This document shows positions 13,975 through 60,658 of a stretch of 64,000 bases of DNA, piece by piece; the stretch's first letter is position 1; each line of letters opens with the position of its first letter. Below the pieces are notes generated by a model. It was not told the origin of the DNA, did not search any database, and was given only the letters and a program-made list of their open reading frames with translations. Origin of the DNA: a virus; IMG/VR virus record IMGVR_UViG_3300017963_000003, positions 124,001 through 188,000 of that record. One strand, 5' to 3'. The translations under genes and the position numbers were made by a program.

Positions 13975-14516
13975 TGCGTACGATCAGCCTGGACGAAGAC
14001 CCCATGATCCGTGTTCAGATCAAGAAAGGCGACGAGATCGTCCCCTTCTCCGACGAGTTCACGGGTTGGATCGACTGCGAAGTCAACGACGTCGCGGACA
14101 TGATCCTCGACGAGATCAACGAGATGATGGAATCCGTCGGCGGCGACTCGTGGAAGATCGTCGCGTCGGATGGATTCGGCGGCTGGGAAAACCCCGACGA
14201 CGATCTCGAAGAGATCGAGAAATTCGTCGAGATCTGCCGCATGCCCGAGATCAACGGGCGCAATGACGTGGTGGGGGTCATGGCCGCTAACGGCTACTAC
14301 GTTGATCTCGATGCGGTCGAAAGCGCGATCCGGGACCGGTTCGTCGGTATCGTCAACTGTTTCCGCGACTACGCGGCGGATTTCCTCGACGACATAGGGG
14401 ATATCCCCGAGTTCATCGTGCACTACATCGACCTGGATCGGTTCGCACGGGATCTCGAATCGGACTATGAGACTTACGAGACCCCCAGCGGCGAGACCGT
14501 GATCCTCCACGCCTAG
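13974..14516 (+). CDS. ardA: ArdA-like antirestriction protein
   Basis: 180 residues, close to the 165-180 usual for ArdA. It is strongly acidic with the ArdA layout: GWIDCEVNDVADMILDEIN near the N-terminus, WKIVASDGFGGW in the middle, and the C-terminal HYIDLDRFARDL followed by a short beta-strand ending in VILHA. ArdA is a DNA mimic that blocks type I restriction-modification enzymes by occupying their DNA-binding groove. Expression from an early promoter fits a counter-defence role. The match is by pattern; the acidic surface itself cannot be shown here. Confidence 0.78.
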   Translation: MRTISLDEDPMIRVQIKKGDEIVPFSDEFTGWIDCEVNDVADMILDEINEMMESVGGDSWKIVASDGFGGWENPDDDLEEIEKFVEICRMPEINGRNDVVGVMAANGYYVDLDAVESAIRDRFVGIVNCFRDYAADFLDDIGDIPEFIVHYIDLDRFARDLESDYETYETPSGETVILHA

Positions 14517-39711: not shown

Positions 39712-39877
39712 CGTCGATCTCCTTCAGAAGCAGCCAGTCGCAGAAGGACTGAAAGTCTTCATCGTCTCGTTGACGTTGTTCAGCCGTCATCCCTCGACGC
39801 TCGCGCTCGAAAACGTTCACGAGAGTCGAAGGGTGGTTGTAGTCCAGGTCCTCGGTATTAACGTCGTCCGGTCTCAT
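39698..39877 (-). CDS. Hypothetical small protein, 59 aa
   Basis: ATG 39877 with AGAGGTAGG upstream; stop overlaps the next gene by 14 bases, and the start overlaps the upstream stop as ATGA. Acidic and helical (MRPDDVNTEDLDYNHPSTLV and following). The tight fit between neighbours supports it. Confidence 0.6.
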   Translation of the reverse strand: MRPDDVNTEDLDYNHPSTLVNVFERERRGMTAEQRQRDDEDFQSFCDWLLLKEIDDEAY

Positions 39878-40428
39878 CCTACCTCTTCTCGTTGAGGATC
39901 ATAAAACTCCAAGAACTCGACAGGTATCTTGCCGTCGAAGAGCAGCAAGCAGTCCCCGAATGTCGTGTCGGAAAAAGAGAAGCCCTCTACCACTCCCGAC
40001 ATCGCTTCGAGGTCCACCACGATGGCAACCTCTCCGTAAGAACTACTCATCTCCGGATCGAGACCCACGCAGGCCATATGGATGTTGGGGTGGGCTTCCT
40101 TGAGGAGTTCTTCCACCTCTTCAAACCACGGATGACCGTCAGGAAGATTCCGCTTCCACTCCGAAGGGTGACCGTACTTCTCGTCCAGGATGTCCTGGTA
40201 CTCGTACGGAAGCTCGCAGTACATGTACCCGGCGTGGTGTTCTCCAGGGGTCCAGTTCTGTGTGCCCAGACCCTCACGCATGATCTTCTCGGCGTTCTCT
40301 CTCGAAGTCCAGTGCCACCCCTTCCCGTGACCACCGATGCCGCCAGCCTCGTAGAACGGACATTCCCGCCGCTCGACCTCTTGAGCTATGCGACGAATAC
40401 CGGAGTCTGAAATGCCTTGGAGTTTCAT
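39874..40428 (-). CDS. RRIA-family protein with ADP-ribosyltransferase-like segment, 184 aa
   Basis: Start ATG 40428. N-terminal tag MKLQGISDSGIRRIAQ is shared by neighbours. After the tag, KGWHWTSRENAEKIMREGL and the beta-rich GEVAIVVDLEAMSG resemble short ADP-ribosyltransferase (ART) folds, where a His/Trp-Thr strand precedes an Ile..Gly-Leu helix. A catalytic Glu cannot be assigned. Such proteins in T4 (Alt) are packaged and injected. Confidence 0.6.
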   Translation of the reverse strand: MKLQGISDSGIRRIAQEVERRECPFYEAGGIGGHGKGWHWTSRENAEKIMREGLGTQNWTPGEHHAGYMYCELPYEYQDILDEKYGHPSEWKRNLPDGHPWFEEVEELLKEAHPNIHMACVGLDPEMSSSYGEVAIVVDLEAMSGVVEGFSFSDTTFGDCLLLFDGKIPVEFLEFYDPQREEVG

Positions 40429-40835
40429 TCTTCCACCATTGCAGGAGACCACCAGCGCTCGATGTCCTTCACCTCTTCTACGTCCGTCACCACGTACCCG
40501 TCTTCATCCATCTCAGGATAAGCTTCGAATTGAGAAGCGGTAGGATCAAAGATACTCCCGTTCACATCTAACCAAGTGTGCCCCTCTGGCTCGGAATCGT
40601 CCCCGTAAAGATCATAAAACCCATGATGCACTTCTACGTCGAAACCAGCCGAGTCCAACAACACAGCCCATTTAGCAGAAGCCTCATGGCATCCGTATAT
40701 GACTCCTACAACACCCATATTCTCCCTGACGAAGGTCTTGAGATTGTCACCCGCCAAAGGAGAAAACCAGTATCCATCAAAAGCCGTTTGAGCAATCCTC
40801 CTCAAGCCGGAATCTGGGATGCCTTGGAGTTTCAT
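40425..40835 (-). CDS. RRIA-family protein, 136 aa
   Basis: ATG 40835 overlaps the upstream stop as TGATG. N-terminal tag MKLQGIPDSGLRRIAQ. The body resembles a papain-like or transglutaminase-like fold by pattern only: VIYGCHEASAKWAVLLDSAG, VEVHHGFYDLYGDD and GHTWLDVNGSIFDPTA give Cys, His and Asp in the right order. Hydrolase activity is therefore possible but unproved. Confidence 0.6.
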   Translation of the reverse strand: MKLQGIPDSGLRRIAQTAFDGYWFSPLAGDNLKTFVRENMGVVGVIYGCHEASAKWAVLLDSAGFDVEVHHGFYDLYGDDSEPEGHTWLDVNGSIFDPTASQFEAYPEMDEDGYVVTDVEEVKDIERWWSPAMVEE

Positions 40836-41653
40836 CAAGGGGTACTCCAGCGCTCCACTACATCAATGAAGTTGTCGTGAGCGTCTTCCTCGGTGTGTGC
40901 GTGCCACGTCTCCGTCTTGCCATCAGCCCACACCACCTGGACCGTCTTTCCGAAGCGGTACACTGTGCACGACTGGGTCTCGGGGTAAGGAGAATCCATC
41001 CAAGGGATGTGCTCCTCCTCGTCGGGCTCCTGCGTATCCACCAGAGCCTGCGCAGACTTCTTGTCCAGCCACACCGAGTCGATCAGGGCATAGATCAAGT
41101 CCTCCTGCTCCGGGGTGAATACCCACCGGACACCCATGTTCTCTTCGGCCCACCCACGAGGAGTATTCCCGCGTTCCTCGGACGTCGCCATCCAGTCAGC
41201 AACCATCTCAGCAATGTCGAGAACTCCCATCCCGCTACCATCGATAGGTCGCTCCGCAGGGCCGTCCCGATCCTCTTCGTTGAGGACGTCCAGCGTTTCG
41301 AGCTGATGGTACTCCGGATGGTGGGGGTTGTTCAGAATGTGATGCTGAGTGGCCGCCTTGATCGCGTCGTCCATCCCCTCTGGGAGCTGGCACTCAACGC
41401 CGTCGTCCTGGCACTTGTAGCGCCACGTCAACCAGACGTACGGGTCCAGCTCGGGTTCGTCAAACTTCCCCGCATCGTGCTCTTCTCCGCGCTCGATCAA
41501 CCCATCCAACCCATCCCACGCGTCCTCCAGGAGGCGACAGTACTTCTGAACCAGGGCTATGTGCCGTTCAGTGCGCTCGACGAAGTGACGCTTCATCTCG
41601 TCGTCGAGCATCTCCGCAATACGCCTCAGCGCCGCCCCTGTGATGCCTCTCAT
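40835..41653 (-). CDS. RRIA-family protein with DUF5662-like HD domain, 272 aa
   Basis: Start ATG 41653, tag MRGITGAALRRIAEM. The body (HIALVQKYCRLL, GEEHDAGKFDEPE, AATQHHILNNPHHPEYH) matches the DUF5662 pattern, an HD-like metal-binding helical family common in phages. The C-terminal 70 residues form a separate beta-rich part (SCTVYRFGKTVQVVWADGKT). Substrate unknown. Confidence 0.68.
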   Translation of the reverse strand: MRGITGAALRRIAEMLDDEMKRHFVERTERHIALVQKYCRLLEDAWDGLDGLIERGEEHDAGKFDEPELDPYVWLTWRYKCQDDGVECQLPEGMDDAIKAATQHHILNNPHHPEYHQLETLDVLNEEDRDGPAERPIDGSGMGVLDIAEMVADWMATSEERGNTPRGWAEENMGVRWVFTPEQEDLIYALIDSVWLDKKSAQALVDTQEPDEEEHIPWMDSPYPETQSCTVYRFGKTVQVVWADGKTETWHAHTEEDAHDNFIDVVERWSTP

Positions 41654-41655
41654 CC

Positions 41656-42186
41656 TCACCTCTGGGACTCTTGCTTCCCGGCCCACTCGCCGGTCACAGC
41701 GTACGCGGCCTCTTCGAGGTGGTTCCCATGGTAGGCCTCCTCCCCGCGCATCCACGCCTGGAAGGAAGCGCTGGCATAGGAGAGCGCACCCGCCGCCACC
41801 CACGAGATGCCCCCACAAAGGGCTCCCGGTACCGGAGAGCCTGCGCTCCACGAGAGCAAGAACATCGTCAATCCGTACAGGAACCCAAGCAGCATCGCGG
41901 CCTCGTACTGCTCACTGTGGAAGTGCTCGTGGAACTCCACTGGAGTGTCGATGCCCTCGCCACCGGCTGCCGTGGGGAAGAACATGCCACCATGACCGAG
42001 ACAGTTGCCGCCCATCTTGAACTTCCGGTCAGGCCACGAGCCTTCCTTGAACTCGAACCAAAGACCTTCCAGCCAGTGAAGCTTGTGACCCCAGAGCGCC
42101 CATGCGGTCAGGATGACGACCCACGAGATGATGTCCCACGGCCACGTCCACAGGTAGGTCAGGTAGTAGCGTGCTGGACGTTTCAT
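41656..42186 (-). CDS. Membrane protein with metal-site-like histidines, 176 aa
   Basis: Two N-terminal hydrophobic segments (about 7-33: YLTYLWTWPWDIISWVVILT...) and a long C-terminal one (about 98-140) indicate a multi-span membrane protein. Between them is VEFHEHFHSEQYE, which with YHGNHLEEAAY could form a metal site like those of membrane metalloproteases. It lacks the RRIA tag of its neighbours but is coupled to both. Confidence 0.6.
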   Translation of the reverse strand: MKRPARYYLTYLWTWPWDIISWVVILTAWALWGHKLHWLEGLWFEFKEGSWPDRKFKMGGNCLGHGGMFFPTAAGGEGIDTPVEFHEHFHSEQYEAAMLLGFLYGLTMFLLSWSAGSPVPGALCGGISWVAAGALSYASASFQAWMRGEEAYHGNHLEEAAYAVTGEWAGKQESQR

Positions 42187-43469
42187 AGCGCCTCCTCGTA
42201 CTCGCGCATCAACTGGTACGCTTCTTCAAAGCGCCCAACCCAAGGATTGCGTTCAATCACCACAGGTACCTCACCAAGTCCGGCACGCTGAGCAGCGAAC
42301 CAGCGGTGGTGCCCATCCTCGATGAGGTAGAGACCGTCCCCGACAGGAGTTACCGTCAACGGCCCCATGTACCGGGGCCAACCCTCGGCCTTGTAGAACT
42401 GGTCTTCGATGTCATTTATCGAGGAGGGGTCTTTCTCTTCTAGAGGTTCCGTAGGGTACAACGAGTCCACCGGAACCCACGTTGCCGATGACAGGTCTTC
42501 AGGTAGCGCCTCGGCAATGCGACGAACTCCGTTGCCCAGCTGAAGCTCAGGCTCCTCTTTCTCCTCCAGAGGCACGTAGTAAATGTCTTTATAGTCCTCC
42601 GGATTAGGCCATGTAGGCTCCACTACTCCTTGCTCCGCGACTCCCCGAGGAAGTTCTATTTCGAGAATCACAGGGTCTTCCAAAGATCCGTCCCAGCCCC
42701 CTTTGCGGGCGTACTCACGCGCAGACACCAGCGTACCAAACAGGTACACCCCGTACCCCCAATCCCCCCACCCACCCCAAAACCCTTCACGCTCGATACT
42801 GTCAGCAGACTCCCTATCGGTGACGTGGTAATAGGTCTCCGTACGCTGAGCCTCAGCAACACGACGCTCCTCCAAAGGATGGTCGGGCATCAGGTAGTCG
42901 TTCTGCCAATACAACACCTCCGGCTCGCCGTAGTGCTCTGAGAACTCGTTCTCAATTATCTCGCCGGTCTCTTCTCGGTCGAACGCCTTCTCCGGATCAA
43001 TGGTATCCCAGTCTTCGAGAGGAACCCACCTCTCGCCGTTCCAGACGAACACTTCCTCGGGGTCGACATCATCGACGATCCAGGCATCCGCGAAAGCGTC
43101 TCGTGTACCGATCTCGTCGCGCTTCAAACCCTCGAAGACGTTGGTACGCACCGCGAGCACCACAGGGAAGGTGCCGGTGAAGAACTCCTGCTCGTCACCG
43201 ACCAACTCATTCTGCCCCCAGTCCTCCGACCGGCTGTACCAGAATAGAAGACCGTCCCAAGTCGTTGTAAAGACGCCCTGCTTGCTGTGCTCCGAGTAAC
43301 CAGCGCCCTGCCCTACCCCACCTCCCACGTCTCCGAGAAGACCCTCTTCAGAGATACCATCGAGATTCCGATAGTAGGTCACGTGGTACACAACATCCGG
43401 AACGTCCCCAAAGAACCCCTCCTGCGCGATCCTCCTCAATCCGGAATCTGGGATACCTCTCAACCTCAT
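42183..43469 (-). CDS. RRIA-family modular protein: two ART-like parts plus ParB-like part
   Basis: 428 residues, start ATG 43469. Three modules follow three RR(I/V)A(Q/E) motifs: RRIAQ at 12-16, then VVYHVTYYRNLDGISEEGL (ART-like); RRVAE at 202-206, then TYYHVTDRESADSIEREGF and GYGVYLFGTLVSAREYA (ART-like); RRIAE at 316-320, then WVPVDSLYPTEP...EDGHHRWFAAQRAG (ParB/sulfiredoxin-like nuclease fold). ART domains transfer ADP-ribose to host targets; ParB-like folds can bind or cut nucleotides. The repeated motif at every junction suggests processing into separate proteins. Confidence 0.7.
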   Translation of the reverse strand: MRLRGIPDSGLRRIAQEGFFGDVPDVVYHVTYYRNLDGISEEGLLGDVGGGVGQGAGYSEHSKQGVFTTTWDGLLFWYSRSEDWGQNELVGDEQEFFTGTFPVVLAVRTNVFEGLKRDEIGTRDAFADAWIVDDVDPEEVFVWNGERWVPLEDWDTIDPEKAFDREETGEIIENEFSEHYGEPEVLYWQNDYLMPDHPLEERRVAEAQRTETYYHVTDRESADSIEREGFWGGWGDWGYGVYLFGTLVSAREYARKGGWDGSLEDPVILEIELPRGVAEQGVVEPTWPNPEDYKDIYYVPLEEKEEPELQLGNGVRRIAEALPEDLSSATWVPVDSLYPTEPLEEKDPSSINDIEDQFYKAEGWPRYMGPLTVTPVGDGLYLIEDGHHRWFAAQRAGLGEVPVVIERNPWVGRFEEAYQLMREYEEAL

Positions 43470-44149
43470 CTCGGCCCCTCGTAAGGTCCCCATCTGGAGA
43501 GGGCCGCCTCAAACATCTCAGGCGTGACGCCGTTGACCCCGACGATATACTCAGGGGGAACGAAGCCCGTGAACACGACACCTCCTGGATGGAGGTCCCC
43601 TCCAAGAGGGACGCTCCCGTCCAGAGGAACATCAACAGTCACCCAAGGGAAATGCTTGTTATGCCGCTCAGATTCACTCGAAGGGTGGTTGACGCCTACT
43701 CCGAAAACAGACGTCGGTGACTCACTGCTTCTCCCAGCGCCCTCTGGTTGCGACACGAGGCCTTGAGAAAGGATAGACTGCATGAGGACCAGGCCTATAC
43801 CGCCTTGCATGCCCGCAGAGTGAGAGAAACGGAAAGTCCCTTCTAGGGGTGAAGGAAGGTACCGTTCGTCCTGCACAGCACTCCAGGCCTCCATTGCAAT
43901 AGGTCTGATGAGGTCCCACTCATCCGTGTATTGTAGCTCTCTGAACTCCTCGGCAGACATCCCCAGAAGATCGCCCATGATCGACGCAAACGCGTCCGCG
44001 TCGTACATGAGGTTGCCCACATCGGACCAACGCAACGCGAAATAGGCCGCCATCTCCTCCACATCAGGGAGTGCGATGTCGCGCCCATCCCCTTCTGCGG
44101 ACTGTGCGATCCTTCTCAATCCGGAATCTGGGATGCCTTGGAGTTTCAT
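43466..44149 (-). CDS. RRIA-family protein, 227 aa
   Basis: Tag MKLQGIPDSGLRRIAQ, then a helical part (VEEMAAYFALRWSDVGNLMY) and a beta-rich C-terminal part (FPWVTVDVPLDGS, GGVVFTGFVPPEYIVGVNGV) whose end resembles the last strands of ART-like folds. Start ATG 44149 overlaps the upstream stop. Function unproved. Confidence 0.62.
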   Translation of the reverse strand: MKLQGIPDSGLRRIAQSAEGDGRDIALPDVEEMAAYFALRWSDVGNLMYDADAFASIMGDLLGMSAEEFRELQYTDEWDLIRPIAMEAWSAVQDERYLPSPLEGTFRFSHSAGMQGGIGLVLMQSILSQGLVSQPEGAGRSSESPTSVFGVGVNHPSSESERHNKHFPWVTVDVPLDGSVPLGGDLHPGGVVFTGFVPPEYIVGVNGVTPEMFEAALSRWGPYEGPR

Positions 44150-44538
44150 CAGTACAGCTTCATCCCCAAGCTTTTAGCCTTCTCCGCACGCTCAGGTCTC
44201 GTAGATCCAGCATCCAACGAGATGTCTCCATCTCCTGTGATGCGATAACGCGCGTACCCTCCGTCACCGTAGAGAACCCATACGTAGCTATCACGCATAA
44301 GTTCCCAATAGTCCTCTTCATCCCGGTAAGGCAACGACTCCTCCAAAGCCTCTTCCAGCCTCTGGAGGATTCCGCCCCAGGAGTACTCGGAATCTTCCGC
44401 AACACTGCGTCGTGCCCACGACTCACCCTCTATCTGAGTGAGTACCTCAAGGACACCGTCAGGGTCCTCCAAGACGTTCAGACCTCCCGACTGCGCGATC
44501 CTCCTCAACCCGGAATCTGGGATGCCTTGGAGTTTCAT
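44149..44538 (-). CDS. RRIA-family protein, 129 aa
   Basis: Tag MKLQGIPDSGLRRIAQ is identical to that of the neighbouring gene, while the bodies are unrelated. The body is acidic and helical, with a short beta part (VWVLYGDGGYARYRITGDG). No recognised domain. Confidence 0.62.
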   Translation of the reverse strand: MKLQGIPDSGLRRIAQSGGLNVLEDPDGVLEVLTQIEGESWARRSVAEDSEYSWGGILQRLEEALEESLPYRDEEDYWELMRDSYVWVLYGDGGYARYRITGDGDISLDAGSTRPERAEKAKSLGMKLY

Positions 44539-45893
44539 TACAGATCACGCCCCCAGTCGCCGCCCCCGAAACTGCTCAAGTACCCCATGACCTCCCGGTA
44601 CGAGGGGTCGTCGTGAGCCTCTCCCCACGTACGGTCCGCGAAGTCCTGGCCAAGCTCACGAGTCAGATCGTACAGTTCGCTGGAGGCTGCGAACTCCACC
44701 TCGTTCCACGAGGAGCCGAACTCGTAGTGTCCAGATGCACCAGCATCCTCCTCGAACGTTAGCTCCCGGTCCCATTCTGTGAGCAACGCCTCGGCAGCGG
44801 CACGATGCTCCTCGAAGGAACTTACGGAGCGAACCTGGTCCCGGAGACGAAGAAGGTTCCGAGAGGTCTGCCGCTGGAACTCATGGACTTCGTCCATCGT
44901 GTACGTGCGCTGGGCGATGCGCCGCATCATCGCGACCACCCTGCCCCCACTATCACCAGACTCTCGATACGGAGGGCTCGGAGGCTCGGGAAGTTCACCC
45001 TGGAGATGCGGAGCGGCTTCAAGCAGACGCTTCAGGGTAGTGCCGTGGTACTCGATGCTGCGTGGTTGGTACTGGGTCTCCGAGAACAAGGAGGTCTGAT
45101 CGCTCTCAGGCTCTCCCCAAACGAGCTGCTCCTCGAAATCAAAGTAGCCCCCGTAGACGTCATCGATCCAGGGGATGTTGAACCCCGGCCAGCGAGATTC
45201 CAACTCGCCCTCCGCGTTATCGTAGTCCTCCATCTCGGTAGCAACCGGAGTGATGAACCAGACCGCGCGAACACGGTCAGCCCCTACGTCTTCGGTGTAC
45301 CGGTACTGGTCCGTAGCCAACATCAACAGCTCAGAGGAGAAGTCACCTGTCTGCATGTACTTCCGGAACGCATCCGGGAACCCCGACTCCTCTACAAGAC
45401 CAGACAGCGGGTTACCGAAGTGGTAGAACGTCCCCTCCGCGATCATACTCAAAGGATCGGTCGAAGAGGCATCAGGCTCTGTATCCGACTCCAAGATGTC
45501 GAACGCGGCATCGCGAATCTCCTCGTCAGAGGAGTCGACTGTCAAGTCGTGCCACCCTGCCATCTCCTGGAGATGAAGCTCCAAGACTTCCCAAACCATC
45601 TCCTCGGCGTCGTAATCCGTCTGCGGCTCGTGACCGCTCATGTCCAGGGCGACCACCACGGGATAGTCGGTTACGTAGTGAACATCGTTCTCGTCCGAAT
45701 CAGTGTAGGACTGCGCGACACGACCCACCGCGTACTGAGCAGCGATCTTGAGATCACCCGTAGTGTGGAAACCCGGATGCGTGGTTACCCCTTTATACTT
45801 CTCTCCCACTGAGTAAGGCGGTTCGGCCAGGAAGTCGCCTACCTTGCGAGAGATCCTGTGAAGGGCCTGATCTGTGATGCCAGGAAGCCGCAT
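44538..45893 (-). CDS. RRIA-family modular protein, 451 aa
   Basis: Variant tag MRLPGITDQALHRISRKV. Module 1 (about 30-300) has VTTHPGFHTTGDLKIAAQYA and later strands (YPVVVALDMSG), compatible with an ART-like fold; a second YHF..PLSGLVEESG segment follows. An internal MRRIAQ (323-328) marks a junction, after which about 120 helical residues form module 2. A DSGG just before the junction echoes the DSGL of the tag. Confidence 0.65.
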   Translation of the reverse strand: MRLPGITDQALHRISRKVGDFLAEPPYSVGEKYKGVTTHPGFHTTGDLKIAAQYAVGRVAQSYTDSDENDVHYVTDYPVVVALDMSGHEPQTDYDAEEMVWEVLELHLQEMAGWHDLTVDSSDEEIRDAAFDILESDTEPDASSTDPLSMIAEGTFYHFGNPLSGLVEESGFPDAFRKYMQTGDFSSELLMLATDQYRYTEDVGADRVRAVWFITPVATEMEDYDNAEGELESRWPGFNIPWIDDVYGGYFDFEEQLVWGEPESDQTSLFSETQYQPRSIEYHGTTLKRLLEAAPHLQGELPEPPSPPYRESGDSGGRVVAMMRRIAQRTYTMDEVHEFQRQTSRNLLRLRDQVRSVSSFEEHRAAAEALLTEWDRELTFEEDAGASGHYEFGSSWNEVEFAASSELYDLTRELGQDFADRTWGEAHDDPSYREVMGYLSSFGGGDWGRDL

Positions 45894-45896
45894 GTA

Positions 45897-46190
45897 CTAC
45901 TCAAACAAGTCAGGGTTCGCACCCCACATCGAATCCAGCAGGGTGTTGAGTTCCTGAGACAAGGTCTCCACGTTCTGTACGCATTCGACAAAGCTCTCTG
46001 CGTGGTCTCTGCCGAAGCGGCCCTCGTCCATGGCTTGGCTGAACTCCTGAAGGGAGCCCGCAGCGAACGTAGCGTTCGAGAGCAGTCGAGCCAGGATGTC
46101 CCTATCGCCGTCAGAGATCTCCGCAACTACCTGACGCTCTCCGTTCCGCGCAATCCGGCGTATCCCGTCATCAGTGATTCCACGCTTCAT
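45897..46190 (-). CDS. RRIA-family protein, 97 aa
   Basis: Tag MKRGITDDGIRRIARNGERQ. The body is one helical domain (RDILARLLSNATFAAGSLQEF). First tagged gene in transcription order; it overlaps the upstream lipoprotein-like gene by four bases. Confidence 0.62.
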   Translation of the reverse strand: MKRGITDDGIRRIARNGERQVVAEISDGDRDILARLLSNATFAAGSLQEFSQAMDEGRFGRDHAESFVECVQNVETLSQELNTLLDSMWGANPDLFE

Positions 46191-46459: not shown

Positions 46460-47956
46460 CTACTCCCTCTTCGAGCTGGCCTTGAGATCGTCCCAACGCA
46501 CCTTGATGAGACGGCCGTCATCGAGGCGCATGAAGTAGTAGTCACCCTGCTTGTCGAACTGCGACTCCGCGTACCCCCTCGTCCCCTTCGGATAGGTGGT
46601 GGTCTGGCCCCAGCCGGTAGTGACGGTCACGTCGTTCTTGAGCTGAACACGCTCGTTGGAGTTGAACGCGTACTGCTCGTCCTCGATGAGTCCAGGATCG
46701 AGGTCATGCCGGATGTTACCCAACTCGTCCTCGCGCTCCTCAGCGGTTTCGATCTCCTCGAAGGCGAGCTTGATCTGATCGGCACGTGAACCACGCGGAG
46801 GAACGCGTACGTTCACTGAGTCCTCGATGAGGCCAACCCCGTCACTGGGAATGCTGTGCTGGGGAGGGTTACCCATCGGGTCATGCTCGTCGGAAGGGGG
46901 TCCGATAGGGTCGGCCTCGGAGAGTTTGTTCGGGAAATCGTCCGAATTGCCCAAGGGCGCTCGGTCGATCTTCATCTCGCCCTGCTCGACAGGACCCATG
47001 CCAGGGGTACGGATCTGCGGACGACCGGGCTCAGTACGAGCCGGCATCGCATCAGCGACACGGAAGGGAGTGGAGAGGTCCACCCCCTCCATCAGGACCA
47101 CACCGGCCGTCAAGGGCGTCTGAAGATCCACACCCTCCATGAGTTCTGCAAGGTCGTCAGCCATGTTGGGGGCCTTCTCGACCGGGCTCATGGGGGTCTC
47201 GTGGACATTCTGCTGGAGAGCCGACAGCAGGAGGTCTTCCATCTGACGCTCGATCTCCTGACGCTTCTTCCAGGTACCGGCGCACTCCACGTTGTTCATG
47301 CGGTCACGAACATCGAGAAGCTCACGCACCTTGGCAATCGCCGCGCCTTCGAGCGGGTCTCCGGCGAAGCAATCGAGGAACTCAGAGATCGAGTCCACTC
47401 CCCAACACGAGGTCTTGCGGCTACCCTGGACGACGATGACGATCTGGTCTGCCGGAGCGGCCTTCATGCGCTCCAGGTTGAGCATGTTCAGCTCGTGACA
47501 GATCTTCGACTCCTCGTCCCATTGCGCGCTCAACTCCTTGTCGTACTCGTCACTCTCCAGGTCGAGGGCGAAGAGCTGCTCCAGGAGAGCCACGGCCTCC
47601 TGCTCGAAGGGCGTACCCTTGAGCTTGTAGAACCAGTCCTCCCAATACATCGACTCGCTGTATGCGCGCTTCTTCGACATCGCCGTAGCCTCCAGGGCGC
47701 CAGCCCCCTCTCCGAGCGTCCCCCGCTGGGATTCGAAGAGGTCGACCGCTGCCTCGCTCACGTAGGTCAGGATTTCGTTCGAGCCGTCGAGGAACTCGTT
47801 CTCGCCTTCAAAATCGTCCAGGTTCACTGGGATCTCTACCTGCCAAGGGAGACCCGAACTCTCCGTCACGCTGACCAGGTACGTACCTTCGGTGTCACTG
47901 GGTTCTACCAGAACATCGAAGCCTCGGATGATTGTGGTGAAGCTGTCCTGCGACAT
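46460..47956 (-). CDS. Probable virion protein, 498 aa
   Basis: Acidic protein with a beta-rich N-terminus (TTIIRGFDVLVEPSDTEGTY), a helical middle (SKICHELNMLNLERMKAAPA), a Pro-rich linker with repeated LMEGVDL-TP motifs (about 272-295), and a C-terminal SH3-like part (DDGRLIKVRWDDLKASSK). Size and position among other large proteins suggest a structural or internal virion role. No recognised family. Confidence 0.6.
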   Translation of the reverse strand: MSQDSFTTIIRGFDVLVEPSDTEGTYLVSVTESSGLPWQVEIPVNLDDFEGENEFLDGSNEILTYVSEAAVDLFESQRGTLGEGAGALEATAMSKKRAYSESMYWEDWFYKLKGTPFEQEAVALLEQLFALDLESDEYDKELSAQWDEESKICHELNMLNLERMKAAPADQIVIVVQGSRKTSCWGVDSISEFLDCFAGDPLEGAAIAKVRELLDVRDRMNNVECAGTWKKRQEIERQMEDLLLSALQQNVHETPMSPVEKAPNMADDLAELMEGVDLQTPLTAGVVLMEGVDLSTPFRVADAMPARTEPGRPQIRTPGMGPVEQGEMKIDRAPLGNSDDFPNKLSEADPIGPPSDEHDPMGNPPQHSIPSDGVGLIEDSVNVRVPPRGSRADQIKLAFEEIETAEEREDELGNIRHDLDPGLIEDEQYAFNSNERVQLKNDVTVTTGWGQTTTYPKGTRGYAESQFDKQGDYYFMRLDDGRLIKVRWDDLKASSKRE

Positions 47957-47962
47957 CTCGAC

Positions 47963-50941
47963 CTACCAATCTGCATCGCTGCGACCACCCGCGCCGTACT
48001 CACCCCACGGGATGGACTCGGTGTCCACCATCGGCTCTTCCTCGGCGTCGTACCACTCCTGGAACAGATCGAACCATCCCTTGTCGGCCATCACCTGATC
48101 CAGGATCTCGCTGACCTCTGTCTCCCTGACGGGATAGAAGTCGCCAAGGATGTACGGCAGCTCGTCGTAGACCTTGCGCGGACCAAGCGCGACCAGGGCA
48201 TCGTAGATATTCTCAGCGCCCAAGGCCTCCTTGGACGTCGCGTTCTTGTGATCCGTACCCGGACGAGGACGACCCCGGCTGACGCCCCACTGGTTGATGG
48301 AGAACCCGTCGTTGACCAGGTGCTTGTACCACTGGTCACGGGAGCACGTCGGCAACCGGCGCAGGATGTAGTTCTTCTCGATGTGCGAGTAGGGGCGAGG
48401 GAAGGTGTCGTAGCCTAGCTCCTCGGCCTCTACCATGTCTCCGAGCACGAGATCGTATCCAGGAGGGGTCATCCTGACCAGCTCGAAGTCCTCTGGGTCT
48501 TCCTCCCCGGAACGCTGACCCATGCCCTCCATGTCCCTGACCTGATCGGCCAGGTCCGTGGCGGCGGCTTTCTGCCCCAGCTTACCGCGACTCTCCAGGA
48601 TGGAAAATATCGCAGCCCCTACGATGGGGCTGTGCGAAGTGGCCGCCATCTCAGCCAAGTCTTCGTCCGACAAGCCCTGAAGCTGGTCAGCGGCTGCGGA
48701 CACGTCCCGCATGAAGTCGTCCACATCCTCCGGCAACTCAGACGACCACTCCCAGAACTCCTCGCCCTGCGCAGTCTTCTGCGCGTGAACGAACCGCTGC
48801 CAGTACCGAGGGTCGACCTCATCAGTCGGGATCTCCGGCATGAAACCGCCCTTGAGATCCTTGAGCAGCGCATCTGCGGTACGCTCGTCGCCCTCGTCGT
48901 AGGCGTCCTTGGCCTCCTTGGCCAGGTTGGCGTAGTAGGAGAACTCCTCGTCAGTGAACGACTCGGAGCCGGCTTCGAGGTGCCCCAGAAACTCCTCGAC
49001 CTCCTGCACGAACCCCTTGGCAGCCATGCGCTTCCCGAACCGACGACGACCCGAAAGGTGCTCGGCCATCAAGAAAGCAGCCTTGCGGCCCTGGACAGCC
49101 GTGGCAGCGCCCTGACCGAGATAACTCTGCAAGTCCTCAAGCAGGTTGTACCACTCGACCTCTTGCGGAGAGATGTTGAGACTGTTGAGCAGCGGTGAAA
49201 CCGAATCGTACAGCATCTCCACCTGCGTATCGGCATTCGGATTCAACGCAGCCGAGACCTGCTGGACGATGAAGTCGTTCGCCGTGATCTGGTGGAAGAG
49301 GTTGTCGGTCAGGGTGGCCGGCGCGCTCGGTGTCGACATCGGGGTCATCGGGACTCCGGCCCCCTCCATCGGAGCAACCATGGTGGGATCGGTCACGGAG
49401 GTGTCAGCATCCGGCGCCTGAGGCGCCTGAGGACGCTCGACCCTCGTCCCCTCATCCTGCGCGTACTTGGAGGCAGCGCGCATACCTTGCGCGGCCTTGA
49501 CCACACCCTCACCGACCTGGTCCCAGTTGATCTCACCCATCTCGTTGATCCCCGTGTAGGTATCTTCACCGTACACGTCACTGAAACCCTGCTCGGCCTG
49601 GAGCAGCTGACCGAAGTTGGAGATCGAGTTAGAGATTTGAGCCAGCTCAGCCGCACGGGAGAAGTTCATCTCGTTGCCCACGATGTTGTAGTAGGCCCGC
49701 TTGGTAGCGACGTTGTCGAACCCCTCCAAGTCCTCGGCAGGCTCTTCTTCCTCGTTCTTGCTCCACGGCCACGAGAAAGCCTCGCGAGAAGACTCCTTAC
49801 CGGTCCCCTCGTTCTTCTTGCGGTCCCGCTTCACCTCGTCGGCGTGGTCCTTGTTGCGATCCTGCTCACGCTTACGCTCGGGGCTCTTCGGCATATCGCG
49901 CTTGTACGAAGAGTCGAGATCCTTGGGGCTGTGGTCTTTCTCGACCTGCAACCCGTGAGAGTCCTCCTCGGTGGGGCGACCCTCCACGTTCCAGTCCTTG
50001 TCACCAAAGTCCTGCGCGACACGAGACAGGATCTCAGACCACGCGCGCTTCTTGCGTGCCACGTGGACTTCCTTCTCGCCGGGCTGGATGACATCAATGA
50101 TGGTGTCCTCGTACCCGGAGGTCTCCATGCCGGTGCGAGGATCAACGCCATGGAACCCTGCACGACCGCCGTAGAGGTCGGGCACGCGTTCGGTCACGGT
50201 GGCCACGAGGTAGCTGCCGGGGCTGGTCTCGAACAGCACCATGTCGCCTTCCTCGTAGTACACGCCCTGCGGCTCGCCCTTCTCCTCGACCGGGAGGATG
50301 CCGTAGGTACGACGAAGACCCCCAGCGTCCAACCGAACCTGGCGAGGCTGGTAGCCACGCTGGTTGCGCTCAGCCACAGCACGGTCGATCTCGTCCCCCT
50401 CCAGCGGAGGATCATACTGACCCCGGAGCGGCTCCAGCTCGTACGTGGTGTTGCGCTGCAAGATCTCATCCACGGTACTCTGCGCGAGGATGCGCATACG
50501 ACCGTTGTGGATGAGCGTCGACGGAGGTACCACGCTCCCTGCGGTGACGTGCACCGGGAGCACAGCATGGCACTGTACACCGCTCAGAGAGGCGAACTTC
50601 ACGTTGAACTGGATCTCGGCGTCCACCACCGCGTTCTCGTCGTGAGCAGCGTAACGGACAAACTTCGAGGCGCCGTACGTGATGCTGGGACGTACCGGGA
50701 ACTCGCAAGCATCCAGACACGACTGCGCGGTGATCGCAGCTTCCTGGATGTAAGCATTGAGAGAGCGGTCTTCTCCCCGCAGACCCACAGAGGAACGCTG
50801 CAAGAAGATGTCCGAGAGGTCCACCCCGCCAGCCGTCCGCGACATGTTCTCCCGCATGGCCACGATGCGCTTATCGTGCTCCCGGAACAAGGGATGGTTG
50901 GCAACGTGGTTCCTCTGCTTCAGCTCTTCGAACTTAGGCAT
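47963..50941 (-). CDS. Large probable virion protein, 992 aa
   Basis: Start ATG 50941 (MPKFEELKQRNHVANHPLFR). The first 330 residues are structured (beta-rich, VVDAEIQFNVKFASLSGVQC). A charged linker (about 330-420) and a helical Ala-rich region follow. RVAQ (in SEILSRVAQDFGD) and RMAAKG occur at segment borders, similar to the RRIA motifs of the 40-46 kb family. Probably a structural or internal head protein; no family recognised. Confidence 0.6.
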   Translation of the reverse strand: MPKFEELKQRNHVANHPLFREHDKRIVAMRENMSRTAGGVDLSDIFLQRSSVGLRGEDRSLNAYIQEAAITAQSCLDACEFPVRPSITYGASKFVRYAAHDENAVVDAEIQFNVKFASLSGVQCHAVLPVHVTAGSVVPPSTLIHNGRMRILAQSTVDEILQRNTTYELEPLRGQYDPPLEGDEIDRAVAERNQRGYQPRQVRLDAGGLRRTYGILPVEEKGEPQGVYYEEGDMVLFETSPGSYLVATVTERVPDLYGGRAGFHGVDPRTGMETSGYEDTIIDVIQPGEKEVHVARKKRAWSEILSRVAQDFGDKDWNVEGRPTEEDSHGLQVEKDHSPKDLDSSYKRDMPKSPERKREQDRNKDHADEVKRDRKKNEGTGKESSREAFSWPWSKNEEEEPAEDLEGFDNVATKRAYYNIVGNEMNFSRAAELAQISNSISNFGQLLQAEQGFSDVYGEDTYTGINEMGEINWDQVGEGVVKAAQGMRAASKYAQDEGTRVERPQAPQAPDADTSVTDPTMVAPMEGAGVPMTPMSTPSAPATLTDNLFHQITANDFIVQQVSAALNPNADTQVEMLYDSVSPLLNSLNISPQEVEWYNLLEDLQSYLGQGAATAVQGRKAAFLMAEHLSGRRRFGKRMAAKGFVQEVEEFLGHLEAGSESFTDEEFSYYANLAKEAKDAYDEGDERTADALLKDLKGGFMPEIPTDEVDPRYWQRFVHAQKTAQGEEFWEWSSELPEDVDDFMRDVSAAADQLQGLSDEDLAEMAATSHSPIVGAAIFSILESRGKLGQKAAATDLADQVRDMEGMGQRSGEEDPEDFELVRMTPPGYDLVLGDMVEAEELGYDTFPRPYSHIEKNYILRRLPTCSRDQWYKHLVNDGFSINQWGVSRGRPRPGTDHKNATSKEALGAENIYDALVALGPRKVYDELPYILGDFYPVRETEVSEILDQVMADKGWFDLFQEWYDAEEEPMVDTESIPWGEYGAGGRSDADW

Positions 50942-50945
50942 CGCC

Positions 50946-51320
50946 CTACCTTTTCTTTGTCGCAACCGGCATCGCGGTCTTACCTACCGTGACACGCCCA
51001 CCGGGTACCATCGGGGCAGAAGCCGCCTGTACCGTCTGCCGCTCCCGTTGAGATCTCAAATCAGGCTGAACGGGCTTGTTCTCAAAGGACTCCGGACGTA
51101 CGCAAACGACTTTCGTGGAGTCTATGATAATGCCCGGATACGATCCCGCTTCCGGAGGAGACCAGAACCTCAAACCAGGATCACCCTCGTCGGTCCTGCG
51201 CTCCAAGATCCTCGCCCACAACGCCTCCTCGGTATTCTCGGCAGCGAGTACACGAAAAACAGAACCGCTATCACAATACACGATGTAGGCAAAAAGCGAG
51301 TCTGGGCACTTAGTAGTCAA
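50946..51320 (-). CDS. Hypothetical protein, about 124 aa (uncertain non-ATG start)
   Basis: The frame is clear but the start is not: TTG 51320, GTG 51329 and TTG 51335 are possible; GAGGGTGAAGACC favours TTG 51320. Globular N-terminus (LFAYIVYCDSGSVFRVLAAE) and a basic C-terminal tail. No recognised family. Confidence 0.5.
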   Translation of the reverse strand: MTTKCPDSLFAYIVYCDSGSVFRVLAAENTEEALWARILERRTDEGDPGLRFWSPPEAGSYPGIIIDSTKVVCVRPESFENKPVQPDLRSQRERQTVQAASAPMVPGGRVTVGKTAMPVATKKR

Positions 51321-55693: not shown

Positions 55694-57640
55694 CTACATC
55701 ACGTACAGTTTTCCGTCATCCCCTACATAGAGATACTGCTCACCGAACAGTTGAGCTGCCCGTGACAGGCGCTCGCCCACTTCTCCAACATCGCGATCCC
55801 AGAAACCCGCCCCGTGACCGTTACGGGTCAACCAGAAGTCGTGACCAGCCTGAGCCGACCACATCTCATCCCCTGACCAGTCCGGCCCATGCCCGAGCAA
55901 CGATGCGTACGATTCTAGATCCTCTCGATTCTCCGACTGGAAACGACGACAGTCATCTGCCATCTTAGTCAGAGCTTCAGGAGAGAGGTCCTCTGGTCCG
56001 TAGTTCTCGTCGAGGGGCCGACCACCACTGTCGTCGCTCTCATCGGTCGACGACCAGATGGCGGCTTCGATGTACCCTTCCGTGAAGGAGTCAACACCGG
56101 CCTGAGCTTCGCGGCCAGGAACTCCATCTTCCTCGCGCTGCGCCTCGTAAGGATCGTCAACCGCAACCCCGAGACCTTGAAGACGCGTGCCGTACTCGTC
56201 CCACGCGTCCATGTAGTCCTCGTCCCACATCCAACTATCGGAAGATCCCGGAATGAACGCCAAGATGTAGGCTGCCCGGTATGCGGGGTCGTCCGCATCC
56301 TCTCGATTCTCCGCCGCAAGACCTTCTTCCCACGTTCCGCCTCTGTAAGCGGCATCGTAGTTCCCGGAATTGAAACCCTTGGAAAGCTGCGACCACTCCT
56401 CGTCGCCCCGAGCCTGGCGACTGGCGGAGGGTCCCTCCTCAAAAGGGCGCTCACCCTCCTCGTCGTCCTCATTATCCTCGAATTCTATACCAAGGAACTT
56501 CTCTCGGTTGTACGAATTCTGGATGCCTTCGATCATCTGCCGAAGTTCCGCAGCCGTCGTCGTGAACGCGAAGCCATCGTACGCTTCGGTCAGCGGATCG
56601 TAACCTTCGCGCTCTTCAGTCTTCCACCGCTCGTCCATCTCCTCCGGAGACAGCCGCTCGGAGTCCCAGTCCTCCAGCTCGGCAAAAGCCTCCTGGAGGG
56701 CCTCGTCCTCGCTGCCCCAGCCCTGCTGAATCCACACAGCGGAGGAAGGGGTAAAGCTCGAACTGTCGTGAACGACACCCACGTAAACGGGATCGTCGTT
56801 CAGTGACAGATAAGTATCTCCACCAACTCGTGCTACAGCGGTAGAATCGAACGCCGGGGTCTGCTGGGCGCGCTTACGCGCCTTCGGCCCCGTGGTCCGC
56901 ACACGCTGCTGGGGGACAGGGGCGTCTCCCTCGAAAGGGCGACCCGCCTCGTCTCCGTCCTCCCCACAAAAGGATGGACCGAAATCCATCCCCTCCAGGA
57001 GGTAACGCTCGCCGGAATCCACCTCGTTGATGAGGCCCAGAACGAACCTACGCGACTTCACTTGATGCGGAAGAGGGCCGTTCAGACCGTGGTAGACCAT
57101 CGCCCGGTCGAAGTCCTCCTGAGTGTGGATGTCGGAGGCGATACGCGTCAGATCGGACAACGGCAACGTCGTGTAGCCCTCCTGTCCGATCTGCTCGATG
57201 ACGGCAGCGGCAGCCGAACGAGGGAAGTTGCGCTTGTAGTGATCGTGCAGAATCAAGTACTGCTCCGCAGTGATCGATCCCGTACGATTCTTCTTCCACA
57301 TGCGCTCCAGGTGCCCGTGCAGAGCACGAAGACCCGCGTCCTTGTCCCGGCCAGCATGGCCTTTGACGCGCATGAACGCGTCGTAGACAGACGCCACCGG
57401 GAGCTTCGCGTTCACCTCGGAAGCTTCCGCTTCGAGACGCTCCGCGATGAGCTTCTGTACACGAGCAACGTGCGGGACGTTGAGCCGGAACTCGTTCTCG
57501 TACTCGGCCTCCTTGGCCTGACGCTCTTCCACCGCCCGTGCGTAACGAGACCGAAGACGGTTCGCGTCCACACCATGAACGGAGCGGCCCGAGAGGTCCG
57601 CGAGATCCTGGCATACATTCCTGCCGTATCGGGTTGTCAT
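55694..57640 (-). CDS. Probable virion protein with conserved C-terminal domain, 648 aa
   Basis: Start ATG 57640 (MTTRYGRNVCQDLADLSGRS) with GAGGTAAAACA upstream. The N-terminal 200 residues are helical. The C-terminal 90 residues contain AGHDFWLTRNGHGAGFWDRD, a motif I recall in small phage proteins of unknown role. The repeated RPFEGD / RPFEEG / RPLDEN strings may be linker-borne processing signals. Acidic overall. Confidence 0.62.
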   Translation of the reverse strand: MTTRYGRNVCQDLADLSGRSVHGVDANRLRSRYARAVEERQAKEAEYENEFRLNVPHVARVQKLIAERLEAEASEVNAKLPVASVYDAFMRVKGHAGRDKDAGLRALHGHLERMWKKNRTGSITAEQYLILHDHYKRNFPRSAAAAVIEQIGQEGYTTLPLSDLTRIASDIHTQEDFDRAMVYHGLNGPLPHQVKSRRFVLGLINEVDSGERYLLEGMDFGPSFCGEDGDEAGRPFEGDAPVPQQRVRTTGPKARKRAQQTPAFDSTAVARVGGDTYLSLNDDPVYVGVVHDSSSFTPSSAVWIQQGWGSEDEALQEAFAELEDWDSERLSPEEMDERWKTEEREGYDPLTEAYDGFAFTTTAAELRQMIEGIQNSYNREKFLGIEFEDNEDDEEGERPFEEGPSASRQARGDEEWSQLSKGFNSGNYDAAYRGGTWEEGLAAENREDADDPAYRAAYILAFIPGSSDSWMWDEDYMDAWDEYGTRLQGLGVAVDDPYEAQREEDGVPGREAQAGVDSFTEGYIEAAIWSSTDESDDSGGRPLDENYGPEDLSPEALTKMADDCRRFQSENREDLESYASLLGHGPDWSGDEMWSAQAGHDFWLTRNGHGAGFWDRDVGEVGERLSRAAQLFGEQYLYVGDDGKLYVM

Positions 57641-59321: not shown

Positions 59322-60209
59322 TTAGATGATCGCCGCAGACTTACCCTGATCGGCCATCAGCTTCTCGGCGTGCACGGAGCCCTCGTTGGTCAGCATCATC
59401 TGCTGAGAATCCTTATCGTCGAACCTAAGCAGGTCGGGATGCCGGTAGACTTCCCTCCGCGTGTTGTTCTTCCTCGCGGGCTTGCCCTCGTTGGTCAAAA
59501 TGCGTTGACGCAAATCACCTACGTCTGCACGACCACCCATCTCGTGGAGGGCCAAGAGGAGCTTGTCGAAGAAAGACAAACCGCTCCGAGCAGGTGTCTT
59601 TTTCTTCCGGGCGGTACGCTTACGGACCGGGAGAACTTGGTGCAGATCGAAATAGATCGGACGCAAGCGTGACGCCTTGATCGGGTCAGGTACGAGAGCA
59701 TACTTGTCGTCAGATATCTGCTCGATCTTGGGCATCCCCCGCATCAAGGACTGCACCACGTCCACGGGAGCGTTCGTCATGATCAGATCACCCTCAAGGG
59801 CGTTGATGCACGCGCAGTAGCGCTTGGACCTGATCTTCTTCAGCACGTAGTCGTGCCGGGTATACGAGGACCGACGGATATCGAGCAGGTAGCACTTACC
59901 CCTAAGACCGTTCTTACAGATGTGCTGGCGTCGGAACTCCTGAAAGGAGAGGTTGAAGTAGCGCCGAATCCAGTGGTAGATGGTGACGAAGCTCACCCCA
60001 ATGTAGGCCGCCATACCCTCGGCGCTCCGGAAGGTGCTGGCCTGTAGGAGAATGTCCTTGATCGGTGCGTCGTGATCAGCCTGCGCCACCAACACCCGGT
60101 AAGAGTGCTCATCGCGACACTGACCGCAGAAGTAGTATCCCTTGATCGGGCGCTTCAACCTCGCGCTCGGGATCAACTTTCCGCAATAGGGAGTGTCGCA
60201 CTGCTGCAT
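59322..60209 (-). CDS. Zinc-finger and helix-turn-helix protein, probable regulator, 295 aa
   Basis: The N-terminus has CDTPYCGK and CGQC, a zinc knuckle. Residues about 62-90 (SAEGMAAYIGVSFVTIYHWI) are a helix-turn-helix of the MerR/Xre helical type with the typical hydrophobic spacing. A basic middle (KRTARKKKTPARS) follows, then a possible second winged-helix (LLALHEMGGRADVGDLRQRI). A transcription regulator is the best reading; its sites are unknown. Located directly upstream of late promoter L4. Confidence 0.65.
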   Translation of the reverse strand: MQQCDTPYCGKLIPSARLKRPIKGYYFCGQCRDEHSYRVLVAQADHDAPIKDILLQASTFRSAEGMAAYIGVSFVTIYHWIRRYFNLSFQEFRRQHICKNGLRGKCYLLDIRRSSYTRHDYVLKKIRSKRYCACINALEGDLIMTNAPVDVVQSLMRGMPKIEQISDDKYALVPDPIKASRLRPIYFDLHQVLPVRKRTARKKKTPARSGLSFFDKLLLALHEMGGRADVGDLRQRILTNEGKPARKNNTRREVYRHPDLLRFDDKDSQQMMLTNEGSVHAEKLMADQGKSAAII

Positions 60210-60211
60210 GA

Positions 60212-60658
60212 TCAGCCCACCTGCACCTCGAAGTACGTCTTCAAGAAGTTGTCGAACCTCAACAGTTGATCGGGGATGTAGAGCTTACCCCCTTCACGGA
60301 ACTCAACCATGTCCACGTAGGTGTGAAGCTCACGCTTGAACTTGTCCAAACGAACCGACGGAGCCTTGGGGTCGAAAATACGCTTCCCTTTCTTGACGTC
60401 CTCCTCGGTAACCGGCGCCGCCTCCATCGAAGGAAGCTCCTTCATCTCCCCCGGAACCGGCACCCCCAGCACCTCGTCGTAGAGATGGGTGCAGCCATCA
60501 TGGTCGTGCATCTCTACCCGCTTCATCATCGACTGGAACGTCTCCAAGGTCATCCTGTCCTCGGGTTCCCCAATCGGAGGAGTGTCCCCCGGACACCTCC
60601 CCGTAGCCTTGATGTGATCGACGGCCCACTCAGCCCACGTCCGCAGTTTCTCCCTCAT
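60212..60658 (-). CDS. Hypothetical protein, 148 aa
   Basis: Start ATG 60658. A Trp-containing helical start (REKLRTWAEWAVDHIKATGR), an acidic middle and a beta/helix end (YIPDQLLRFDNFLKTYFEVQ). Overlaps the end of the trigger-factor-like gene by 29 bases. No recognised family. Confidence 0.62.
   Translation of the reverse strand: MREKLRTWAEWAVDHIKATGRCPGDTPPIGEPEDRMTLETFQSMMKRVEMHDHDGCTHLYDEVLGVPVPGEMKELPSMEAAPVTEEDVKKGKRIFDPKAPSVRLDKFKRELHTYVDMVEFREGGKLYIPDQLLRFDNFLKTYFEVQVG

What the first reader, a model, noticed from the sequence alone, without database searches (positions are those of the whole stretch)
39874..46190. Eight genes share an N-terminal RRIA tag in front of unrelated bodies
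Seen: MKLQGIPDSGLRRIAQ or close variants begin the proteins starting at 40428, 40835, 41653, 43469, 44149, 44538, 45893 and 46190, while the bodies differ (ART-like, HD-like, hydrolase-like, helical). Established: T4 packages internal proteins through a short N-terminal capsid-targeting sequence that is then cleaved. Inference: the tag is a packaging and processing signal for a set of injected effectors.
Basis: partly seen in the sequence, partly recalled or inferred. Interest (0 to 1): 0.87.

Follow-up and report, generated by a model that had tools for sequence, protein, structure and literature searches.

The report
Shared N-terminal tag on phage effectors
An uncultivated family of large tailed phages puts the same short "address label" on the front of dozens of otherwise unrelated small proteins, one of them a restriction blocker, most likely so that they are packed into the virus head and injected into the bacterium with the DNA.

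Summary
Eight minus-strand ORFs at window 39874-46190 begin with M(K/R)xxGI(P/S/T)DxG(L/I)RRIAQ or a close variant, and their bodies are unrelated. The tag is constrained as protein: it starts at the ATG, and five copies show pS 0.58 against pN 0.09. It is not local to the window. In contigs sharing this phage's capsid gene I found 55 tagged proteins in 45 body clusters, where Markov-shuffled DNA gave none. Every tagged gene is on the major-capsid strand. Many lie in the head-lysis-neck operon.

One relative carries a full-length ArdA anti-restriction protein behind the tag, 5.7 kb after the capsid gene. Other bodies are GNAT, HAD, ParB/Srx, DUF5661, DUF5662 and ART-like. A more distant pair of relatives uses a different tag (MKFFL-NSNYKRIAE), and in one of them two adjacent unrelated genes share it. 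A head maturation protease lies beside the capsid gene.

The best reading is a capsid-targeting signal working like, but not shown to be related to, the T4 CTS, on a swappable arsenal of co-injected counter-defence proteins. Packaging, injection and tag cleavage are inferred. No cleavage site is conserved behind the tag. I class it as a new variant of a known kind.

The parts
45897..46190 (-). Tagged ORF, 97 aa; tag MKRGITDDGIRRIAR (46146-46190)
44538..45893 (-). Tagged ORF, 451 aa; tag MRLPGITDQALHRISR (45846-45893); body conserved in G001, G013, G019, G022; extra C-terminal module behind an internal tag-like copy
44910..44930 (-). Internal tag-like copy MMRRIAQ at the point where homologues end (fusion junction)
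44149..44538 (-). Tagged ORF, 129 aa; tag MKLQGIPDSGLRRIAQ (44491-44538); no family match
43466..44149 (-). Tagged ORF, 227 aa; tag MKLQGIPDSGLRRIAQ (44102-44149); no family match
42183..43469 (-). Tagged ORF, 428 aa; tag MRLRGIPDSGLRRIAQ (43422-43469); ART-like N-terminal half (motif impression only), ParB/Srx-like C-terminus
42510..42539 (-). Internal tag-like copy LGNGVRRIAE just before the ParB-like domain; the homologous ParB domain in relative G019 is a separate gene with its own N-terminal tag
41656..42186 (-). Untagged hydrophobic protein inside the cluster; homologue in relative G018
40835..41653 (-). Tagged ORF, 272 aa, DUF5662 (PF18907); tag MRGITGAALRRIAE (41612-41653); 68% identical homologue in G007, which also carries tag-like N-terminal sequence
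40425..40835 (-). Tagged ORF, 136 aa; tag MKLQGIPDSGLRRIAQ (40788-40835); only weak transglutaminase-like and DUF7421 hits
39874..40428 (-). Tagged ORF, 184 aa; tag MKLQGISDSGIRRIAQ (40381-40428); ART-like by motif only, no family match
46460..47956 (-). 498-aa protein directly upstream of the tagged cluster, conserved in G007, G013 and G021
47963..50965 (-). 1000-aa protein upstream of the cluster, conserved in G007, G013, G021; weak homologue in Rctr197k is the gene next to terminase

Best explanation
The tag is a capsid-targeting (cargo-loading) signal. A 14-16 residue N-terminal segment, M(K/R)x(0-2)-G-I-(S/T/P)-D-x-G-(L/M/I/F)-x-R-I-A-(Q/K/R), probably a short N-capped amphipathic helix, is recognised during head assembly by a shell or core component (scaffold, major capsid protein or head protease). 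Whatever small protein is fused behind it is thereby built into the prohead and injected with the DNA. The bodies are a rapidly exchanged set of counter-defence and host-takeover proteins: ArdA anti-restriction, GNAT, HAD, ParB/Srx, DUF5661, DUF5662 and ART-like. Shown here: the tag, its protein-level constraint, its spread through the capsid-gene family, the body diversity, the operon context, the tagged ArdA, and the head maturation protease. Inferred: binding partner, packaging, injection, and any removal of the tag.
For: (1) 55 tagged proteins fall into 45 body clusters, 39 of them singletons; 58 tagged ATG ORFs against 0 in each of three shuffles. (2) Protein-level constraint: five window copies pS 0.58, pN 0.09; similarity starts at the ATG. 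(3) Found by their capsid genes, the relatives carry tagged genes in the compact MCP-RRXRR-holin-spanin-neck block: G000 2, G001 11, G002 3, G010 2, G018 4, G020 2, G021 2, G012 1, G023 1, G007 2 within 16 kb downstream of MCP; all 55 on the MCP strand. (4) In G018 the tagged gene 5.7 kb after MCP, among holin and structural genes, is full-length ArdA (PF07275 5.8e-34; phrog_2059 8.9e-41). A restriction blocker made late protects incoming DNA only if it is carried in. (5) In G019, which lacks the main tag, two adjacent unrelated genes in the neck-tail operon share MKFFL(D/N)NSNYKRIAEV, and one is a homologue of the window's 451-aa tagged protein; G022 has MKFFLNDKNYKKIAEA on the same homologue. 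The tag thus changes in step within a lineage, as expected of a ligand following its receptor. (6) Head maturation protease next to scaffold and MCP (phrog_18299, 10 of 10 homologues, 1.2e-32); in the related phage PaBG, MCP shrinks about 20% on maturation and other virion proteins are processed (PMC7412058). (7) ART, ParB/Srx, GNAT and ArdA are recurrent domains of proteins packaged and injected by phages (PMC5512222). (8) The MCP N-terminus of the family (NPYKRIS/A, or NPYRKLAS in G019 and G022) resembles the tag core, suggestive only.
Against: No proteomics or cultured member. The window cluster itself lies about 105 kb from the MCP gene, beside proteins of unknown role. The MCP strand carries most genes in these genomes, so strand agreement is weak. 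No cleavage motif is conserved behind the tag. Most bodies have no known function. AlphaFold models failed (pLDDT 44 and 35), so the helix and ART assignments are unsupported by structure. Because relatives were recruited by their capsid gene, short contigs can only show tagged genes near it.
Confidence: 0.68

Rival explanations
1. The tag is a protein-level localisation or interaction signal, but not for the head: it addresses new proteins inside the infected cell (host RNA polymerase, membrane or replication complex) or to the tail.
For: Nothing here shows the compartment directly. Many tagged genes in the large contigs lie far from the MCP gene: eight in G000, six in G007. In G019 and G022 they sit between neck and tail genes.
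Against: Tagged genes recur in the head-lysis-neck block of many relatives. A tagged late-operon ArdA makes little sense unless carried into the next cell. The bodies match domain types of head-packaged phage proteins (PMC5512222).
Confidence: 0.17
2. The tag is mainly a prohead-protease recognition or cleavage element; internal copies mark polyproteins cut into separate effectors.
For: Head maturation protease encoded. Internal tag-like copies sit exactly at domain junctions in 42183-43469 and 44538-45893, and in double-tagged ORFs of G001 and G013. A candidate (V/I)(K/Q)(A/G)QE element follows the tag in a minority: 9 of 55 carry [VIL][KQRL][AGS]Q against a shuffle mean of 1; A-x-E is the SPN3US protease motif (ALE-111 in PMC5694885).
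Against: The AQE-like element is absent from the eight window copies and was picked out after looking. Internal copies are degenerate and can be relics of gene fusion: the ParB domain behind one of them is a separate tagged gene in G019.
Confidence: 0.08
3. No function as a tag: a recombination-prone 5' cassette or recent duplications spread one N-terminus over unrelated genes.
For: Five window copies are alike in DNA (92-94% over 47-49 bp for some pairs); the cluster looks like a gene-swapping hotspot.
Against: Synonymous sites strongly diverged while the protein is conserved (pS 0.58, pN 0.09); conserved positions G, I, D, G, R, I, A across many lineages; no conserved DNA upstream of the ATG.
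Confidence: 0.04
4. A translation-level element: the first codons form an RNA signal controlling expression of these genes.
For: The repeats sit exactly at translation starts, and the genes overlap or abut.
Against: Third codon positions vary freely (GGA/GGG/GGC/GGT, AGG/AGA/CGT), which an RNA signal would not allow; relatives keep the peptide, not the DNA.
Confidence: 0.02

Closest known systems
T4 internal proteins IpI-IpIII with the capsid-targeting sequence (CTS)
   Same: Short N-terminal sequence shared by small proteins with no other homology; hypervariable set; anti-restriction bodies; head maturation protease encoded (PMC3012670, PMC12373910, PMC5694885).
   Different: Different phage family; the tag reads M(K/R)xxGIxDxGLxRIA; 55 tagged proteins in 45 body clusters; bodies include known enzyme and ArdA families; no conserved cleavage site found; packaging not shown.
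P1 defence-against-restriction proteins (DarB N-terminal signal)
   Same: N-terminal packaging signal (first 30 residues of DarB sufficient) on injected anti-restriction proteins (PMC9024508).
   Different: In P1 this was shown for one very large protein; here one compact tag is reused on many small unrelated proteins.
Phage polyvalent proteins (DdrB, MuF-ART and similar)
   Same: Same kinds of effector domain: ART, ParB/Srx, GNAT, ArdA (PMC5512222).
   Different: There the domains are strung together in long polypeptides; here most are separate genes, each with its own tag, with occasional two-unit fusions.
SPN3US/phiKZ head ejection proteins
   Same: Large myovirus, many putative inner-head proteins, prohead protease.
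   Different: Their propeptides are mostly over 100 residues (PMC5694885); the tag here is about 15.
Virus Rctr197k and the PaBG group
   Same: Homologous MCP, portal and sheath in Rctr197k; MCP homology and similar head-tail gene order in PaBG.
   Different: No tag found in Rctr197k (197 kb) and no shared N-terminal tag in the 41 kb of PaBG examined.

Membership tests
T4-type CTS-tagged internal proteins | Short N-terminal sequence shared by proteins with unrelated bodies | tested here: met
   55 proteins, 45 body clusters
T4-type CTS-tagged internal proteins | Proteins incorporated in the head and injected | not testable with these tools
   no virions or proteomics; indirect context only
T4-type CTS-tagged internal proteins | Head maturation protease encoded | tested here: met
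   phrog_18299, 1.2e-32, beside scaffold and MCP
T4-type CTS-tagged internal proteins | Conserved protease site directly behind the tag | tested here: inconclusive
   no site common to all; AQE-like element in a minority, absent from the eight window copies
T4-type CTS-tagged internal proteins | Sequence homology of the tag to the T4 CTS | not tested
   no alignment to the T4 sequence was run
T4-type CTS-tagged internal proteins | Tag sufficient to load a foreign protein | not testable with these tools
   needs a reporter fusion
Polyvalent proteins | Two or more effector domains in one polypeptide | tested here: not met
   most tagged proteins are short (mean 171 aa); only a few are two-unit fusions (42183, 44538, G013 L085:1771, G001 L032:1815)
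ArdA (PF07275) | Profile match above the curated cut-off | tested here: met
   tagged G018 protein 118 bits against cut-off 27, profile 1-152 of 155
ParB/Srx domain in window 42183-43469 | Profile match above the curated cut-off | tested here: inconclusive
   PF02195 20.6 bits, below cut-off 26.3; phrog_1033 6.1e-9; ParB structures at about 1e-3
ADP-ribosyltransferases (bodies at 39874, 42183, 44538) | Profile or structural match to an ART | tested here: inconclusive
   no ART profile hit beyond PTS_2-RNA at E 0.023; AlphaFold model unusable

The most novel reading that the evidence does not exclude
A family-wide, modular protein-delivery system: one short N-terminal address, co-varying with a head component within each lineage, loads an open-ended, freely exchanged set of anti-restriction proteins, transferases and nuclease-like proteins into the heads of a whole family of uncultivated large phages, so that any gene captured behind the tag becomes an injected effector.
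Probability: 0.55. Interest if true: 0.82.

Novelty: new variant of a known kind. Interest (0 to 1): 0.72.

Why it matters
The tag works as a sequence-only detector of candidate injected effectors: one short profile pulls 55 mostly uncharacterised proteins out of metagenomic phages. Every body behind it becomes a candidate counter-defence protein, as the tagged ArdA illustrates. If packaging is confirmed, it is a second, apparently independent example of the T4 internal-protein strategy and a compact tag for loading cargo into a phage head.

Tried and rejected
AlphaFold2 of the head protease (10-sequence alignment, pLDDT 43.7) and of window 42183-43469 (single sequence, pLDDT 34.7): too poor for fold search, not used. 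Single-protein IMG/VR searches with window 44538 and 40835 found no relatives; the alignment query found only contigs already known. Translation-level RNA signal and recent duplication: rejected on substitution pattern. All-pairs N-terminus comparison first timed out, then worked vectorised and found no shared tag in Rctr197k or the PaBG stretch. Candidate AQE cleavage element: kept only as a lead, since it is post hoc and absent from the window copies. Loose first pattern scan: 23 hits, only one of which looked like a real tagged N-terminus.
Full report
WHAT WAS CHECKED. The window is G000:C1:124001-188000 of a 192,260-bp virus record. On the minus strand, eight ORFs at 39874-46190 begin with the reported peptide or a variant. 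Five are near-identical (MKLQGIPDSGLRRIAQ) and three divergent. Upstream DNA is unrelated; similarity begins at the ATG and ends at about codon 16. Among five copies, synonymous differences reach 0.58 per site and nonsynonymous 0.09, so the peptide is what is being kept.

THE TAG IS A FAMILY TRAIT. A strict DNA pattern scan of IMG/VR found one other contig (G001), rich in tagged ORFs. Its major capsid gene (phrog_2522) is 87% identical to one in G000 at 59818-61071. A search with that capsid protein gave 23 IMG/VR contigs, and the phage collection gave Virus Rctr197k at 62% and, distantly, the PaBG group. I fetched stretches of these contigs and scored N-termini with a 12-position profile. There were 58 tagged ATG ORFs, near-duplicate contigs included, and none in three Markov-shuffled versions. 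After duplicates and three implausible ORFs were removed, 55 proteins remained, in 45 body clusters, 39 of them singletons. Core consensus over 55: G 49, I 44, S/T/P 46, D 35, G/A 53, hydrophobic, R at position 9 in 54, I/L/V 55, A/S 50. Within-genome tags are more alike than expected when genome labels are permuted (12 of 2000; 45 of 2000 without G000). Two of the 55 are the same ORF counted from an internal second tag (G001 L032:1815-2216, G013 L085:2941-3432).

GENOMIC CONTEXT. All 55 tagged genes lie on the MCP strand, but that strand carries most genes, so this alone is weak. More telling, in G000, G001, G002, G007, G010, G012, G018, G020, G021 and G023, tagged genes occur within 16 kb downstream of MCP, in the compact block that also holds an RRXRR protein, a holin-like and spanin-like genes, and the neck genes. 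Short contigs recruited by MCP can only show that neighbourhood; the long contigs G000, G007 and G021 also carry distant tagged genes. G013 is cut near its MCP gene, so one of its tagged genes would fall about 9 kb downstream if the genome is circular; that is an inference. The window cluster lies about 105 kb from MCP. It follows a 498-aa and a 1000-aa protein, both conserved in G007, G013 and G021; the weak Rctr197k homologue of the 1000-aa protein lies directly before its terminase gene.

WHAT THE TAG CARRIES. In G018, a tagged 255-aa protein is ArdA over its whole profile (PF07275 5.8e-34; phrog_2059 8.9e-41). It lies 5.7 kb after MCP, two genes after the holin-like gene. A restriction blocker made with the structural proteins is useful to incoming DNA only if carried in the particle; this is the strongest functional argument. 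By contrast, an ArdA-like ORF in the window (13974-14516) lies on the opposite strand and has no tag. Other bodies: three GNATs, HAD_SAK_1, DUF7249, DUF5661, DUF5662 (window 40835) and a ParB/Srx-like domain (window 42183). ART-likeness of 39874, 42183 and 44538 rests on motif impression only. ART, ParB/Srx, GNAT and ArdA are recurrent in proteins packaged or predicted to be packaged by phages (PMC5512222).

MODULARITY. The window's 451-aa protein has homologues in G013, G019 and G022 that end before its internal MMRRIAQ, with a fourth match in G001. In G019 the ParB domain matching the C-terminus of 42183 is a separate gene with its own N-terminal tag. Internal tag-like copies thus mark joins between formerly separate tagged units. 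G001 and G013 also have double-tagged ORFs.

A DIFFERENT TAG IN A SISTER LINEAGE. G019 and G022 lack the main tag, but in G019 two adjacent unrelated genes between neck and tail both begin MKFFL(D/N)NSNYKRIAEV, and G022 has MKFFLNDKNYKKIAEA on the same homologue. The address changes between lineages and agrees within G019. The MCP N-termini (NPYKRIS/A; NPYRKLAS in G019 and G022) resemble the tag core; suggestive only.

MACHINERY AND PROCESSING. The gene just upstream of the scaffold-like gene, in the same block as MCP, encodes a head maturation protease (phrog_18299, 1.2e-32, 10 of 10 homologues). PaBG's MCP loses about 20% on maturation and several virion proteins are processed (PMC7412058). 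But no site is conserved behind the tag. A (V/I)(K/Q)(A/G)QE element is enriched in a minority (9 of 55 for [VIL][KQRL][AGS]Q, shuffle mean 1), found after looking and absent from the eight window copies. Whether the tag is removed is open.

COMPARISON. [quoted passage not shown] IpI-IpIII share only their N-terminal leader and block different type IV restriction enzymes (PMC12373910). P1 DarB has an N-terminal packaging signal within 30 residues (PMC9024508). Membership in the T4 CTS family is not claimed: homology was not tested and packaging not shown.

VERDICT. A functional protein-level tag is close to certain (about 0.94); capsid loading and injection is the best reading (0.68); cleavage is unproven.

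Noticed in passing
window 13974-14516 (+): ArdA-like anti-restriction ORF (180 aa, PF07275 8e-13) on the strand opposite to most genes, in a run of small plus-strand ORFs, without the tag.
   Followed up: partly
L038:6395-10789 (-) (G000 66395-70789): Portal protein gene (phrog_16240) interrupted by intein/homing-endonuclease domains (Hint, LAGLIDADG); 1464 aa.
   Followed up: no
L066 (QMZE01000009.1): A contig in an Archaeoglobales MAG has the same length and MCP match as IMG/VR contig 3300014914_000057 (G002): a phage contig binned into an archaeal genome, or a hint at the host.
   Followed up: no
L067:15899-18895: Rctr197k has head protease and scaffold-like protein in one 998-residue reading frame (annotated as a misc_feature); in G000 they are two adjacent genes.
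   Followed up: partly
L037 56053-58274 (G000 coordinates): Holin-like and spanin-like genes nested between head and neck/tail genes, interleaved with tagged genes; similar layout in G001 and G018.
   Followed up: partly
L037:12742-13458 (-): DUF5661 protein between neck genes; its closest hits in isolated phages are short matches, one inside a DUF2213 protein of a Vibrio phage; the apparent G002 counterpart begins with a tag-like sequence.
   Followed up: partly
L040 around 1472 (-) (G000 about 101472): Further ORF beginning MKMRRIAETGALGRL, possibly a truncated tag.
   Followed up: no
window 55694-57640 (-): 648-aa protein whose last 135 residues (phrog_1915) match hypothetical proteins in 402 phage records of very different hosts.
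   Followed up: no
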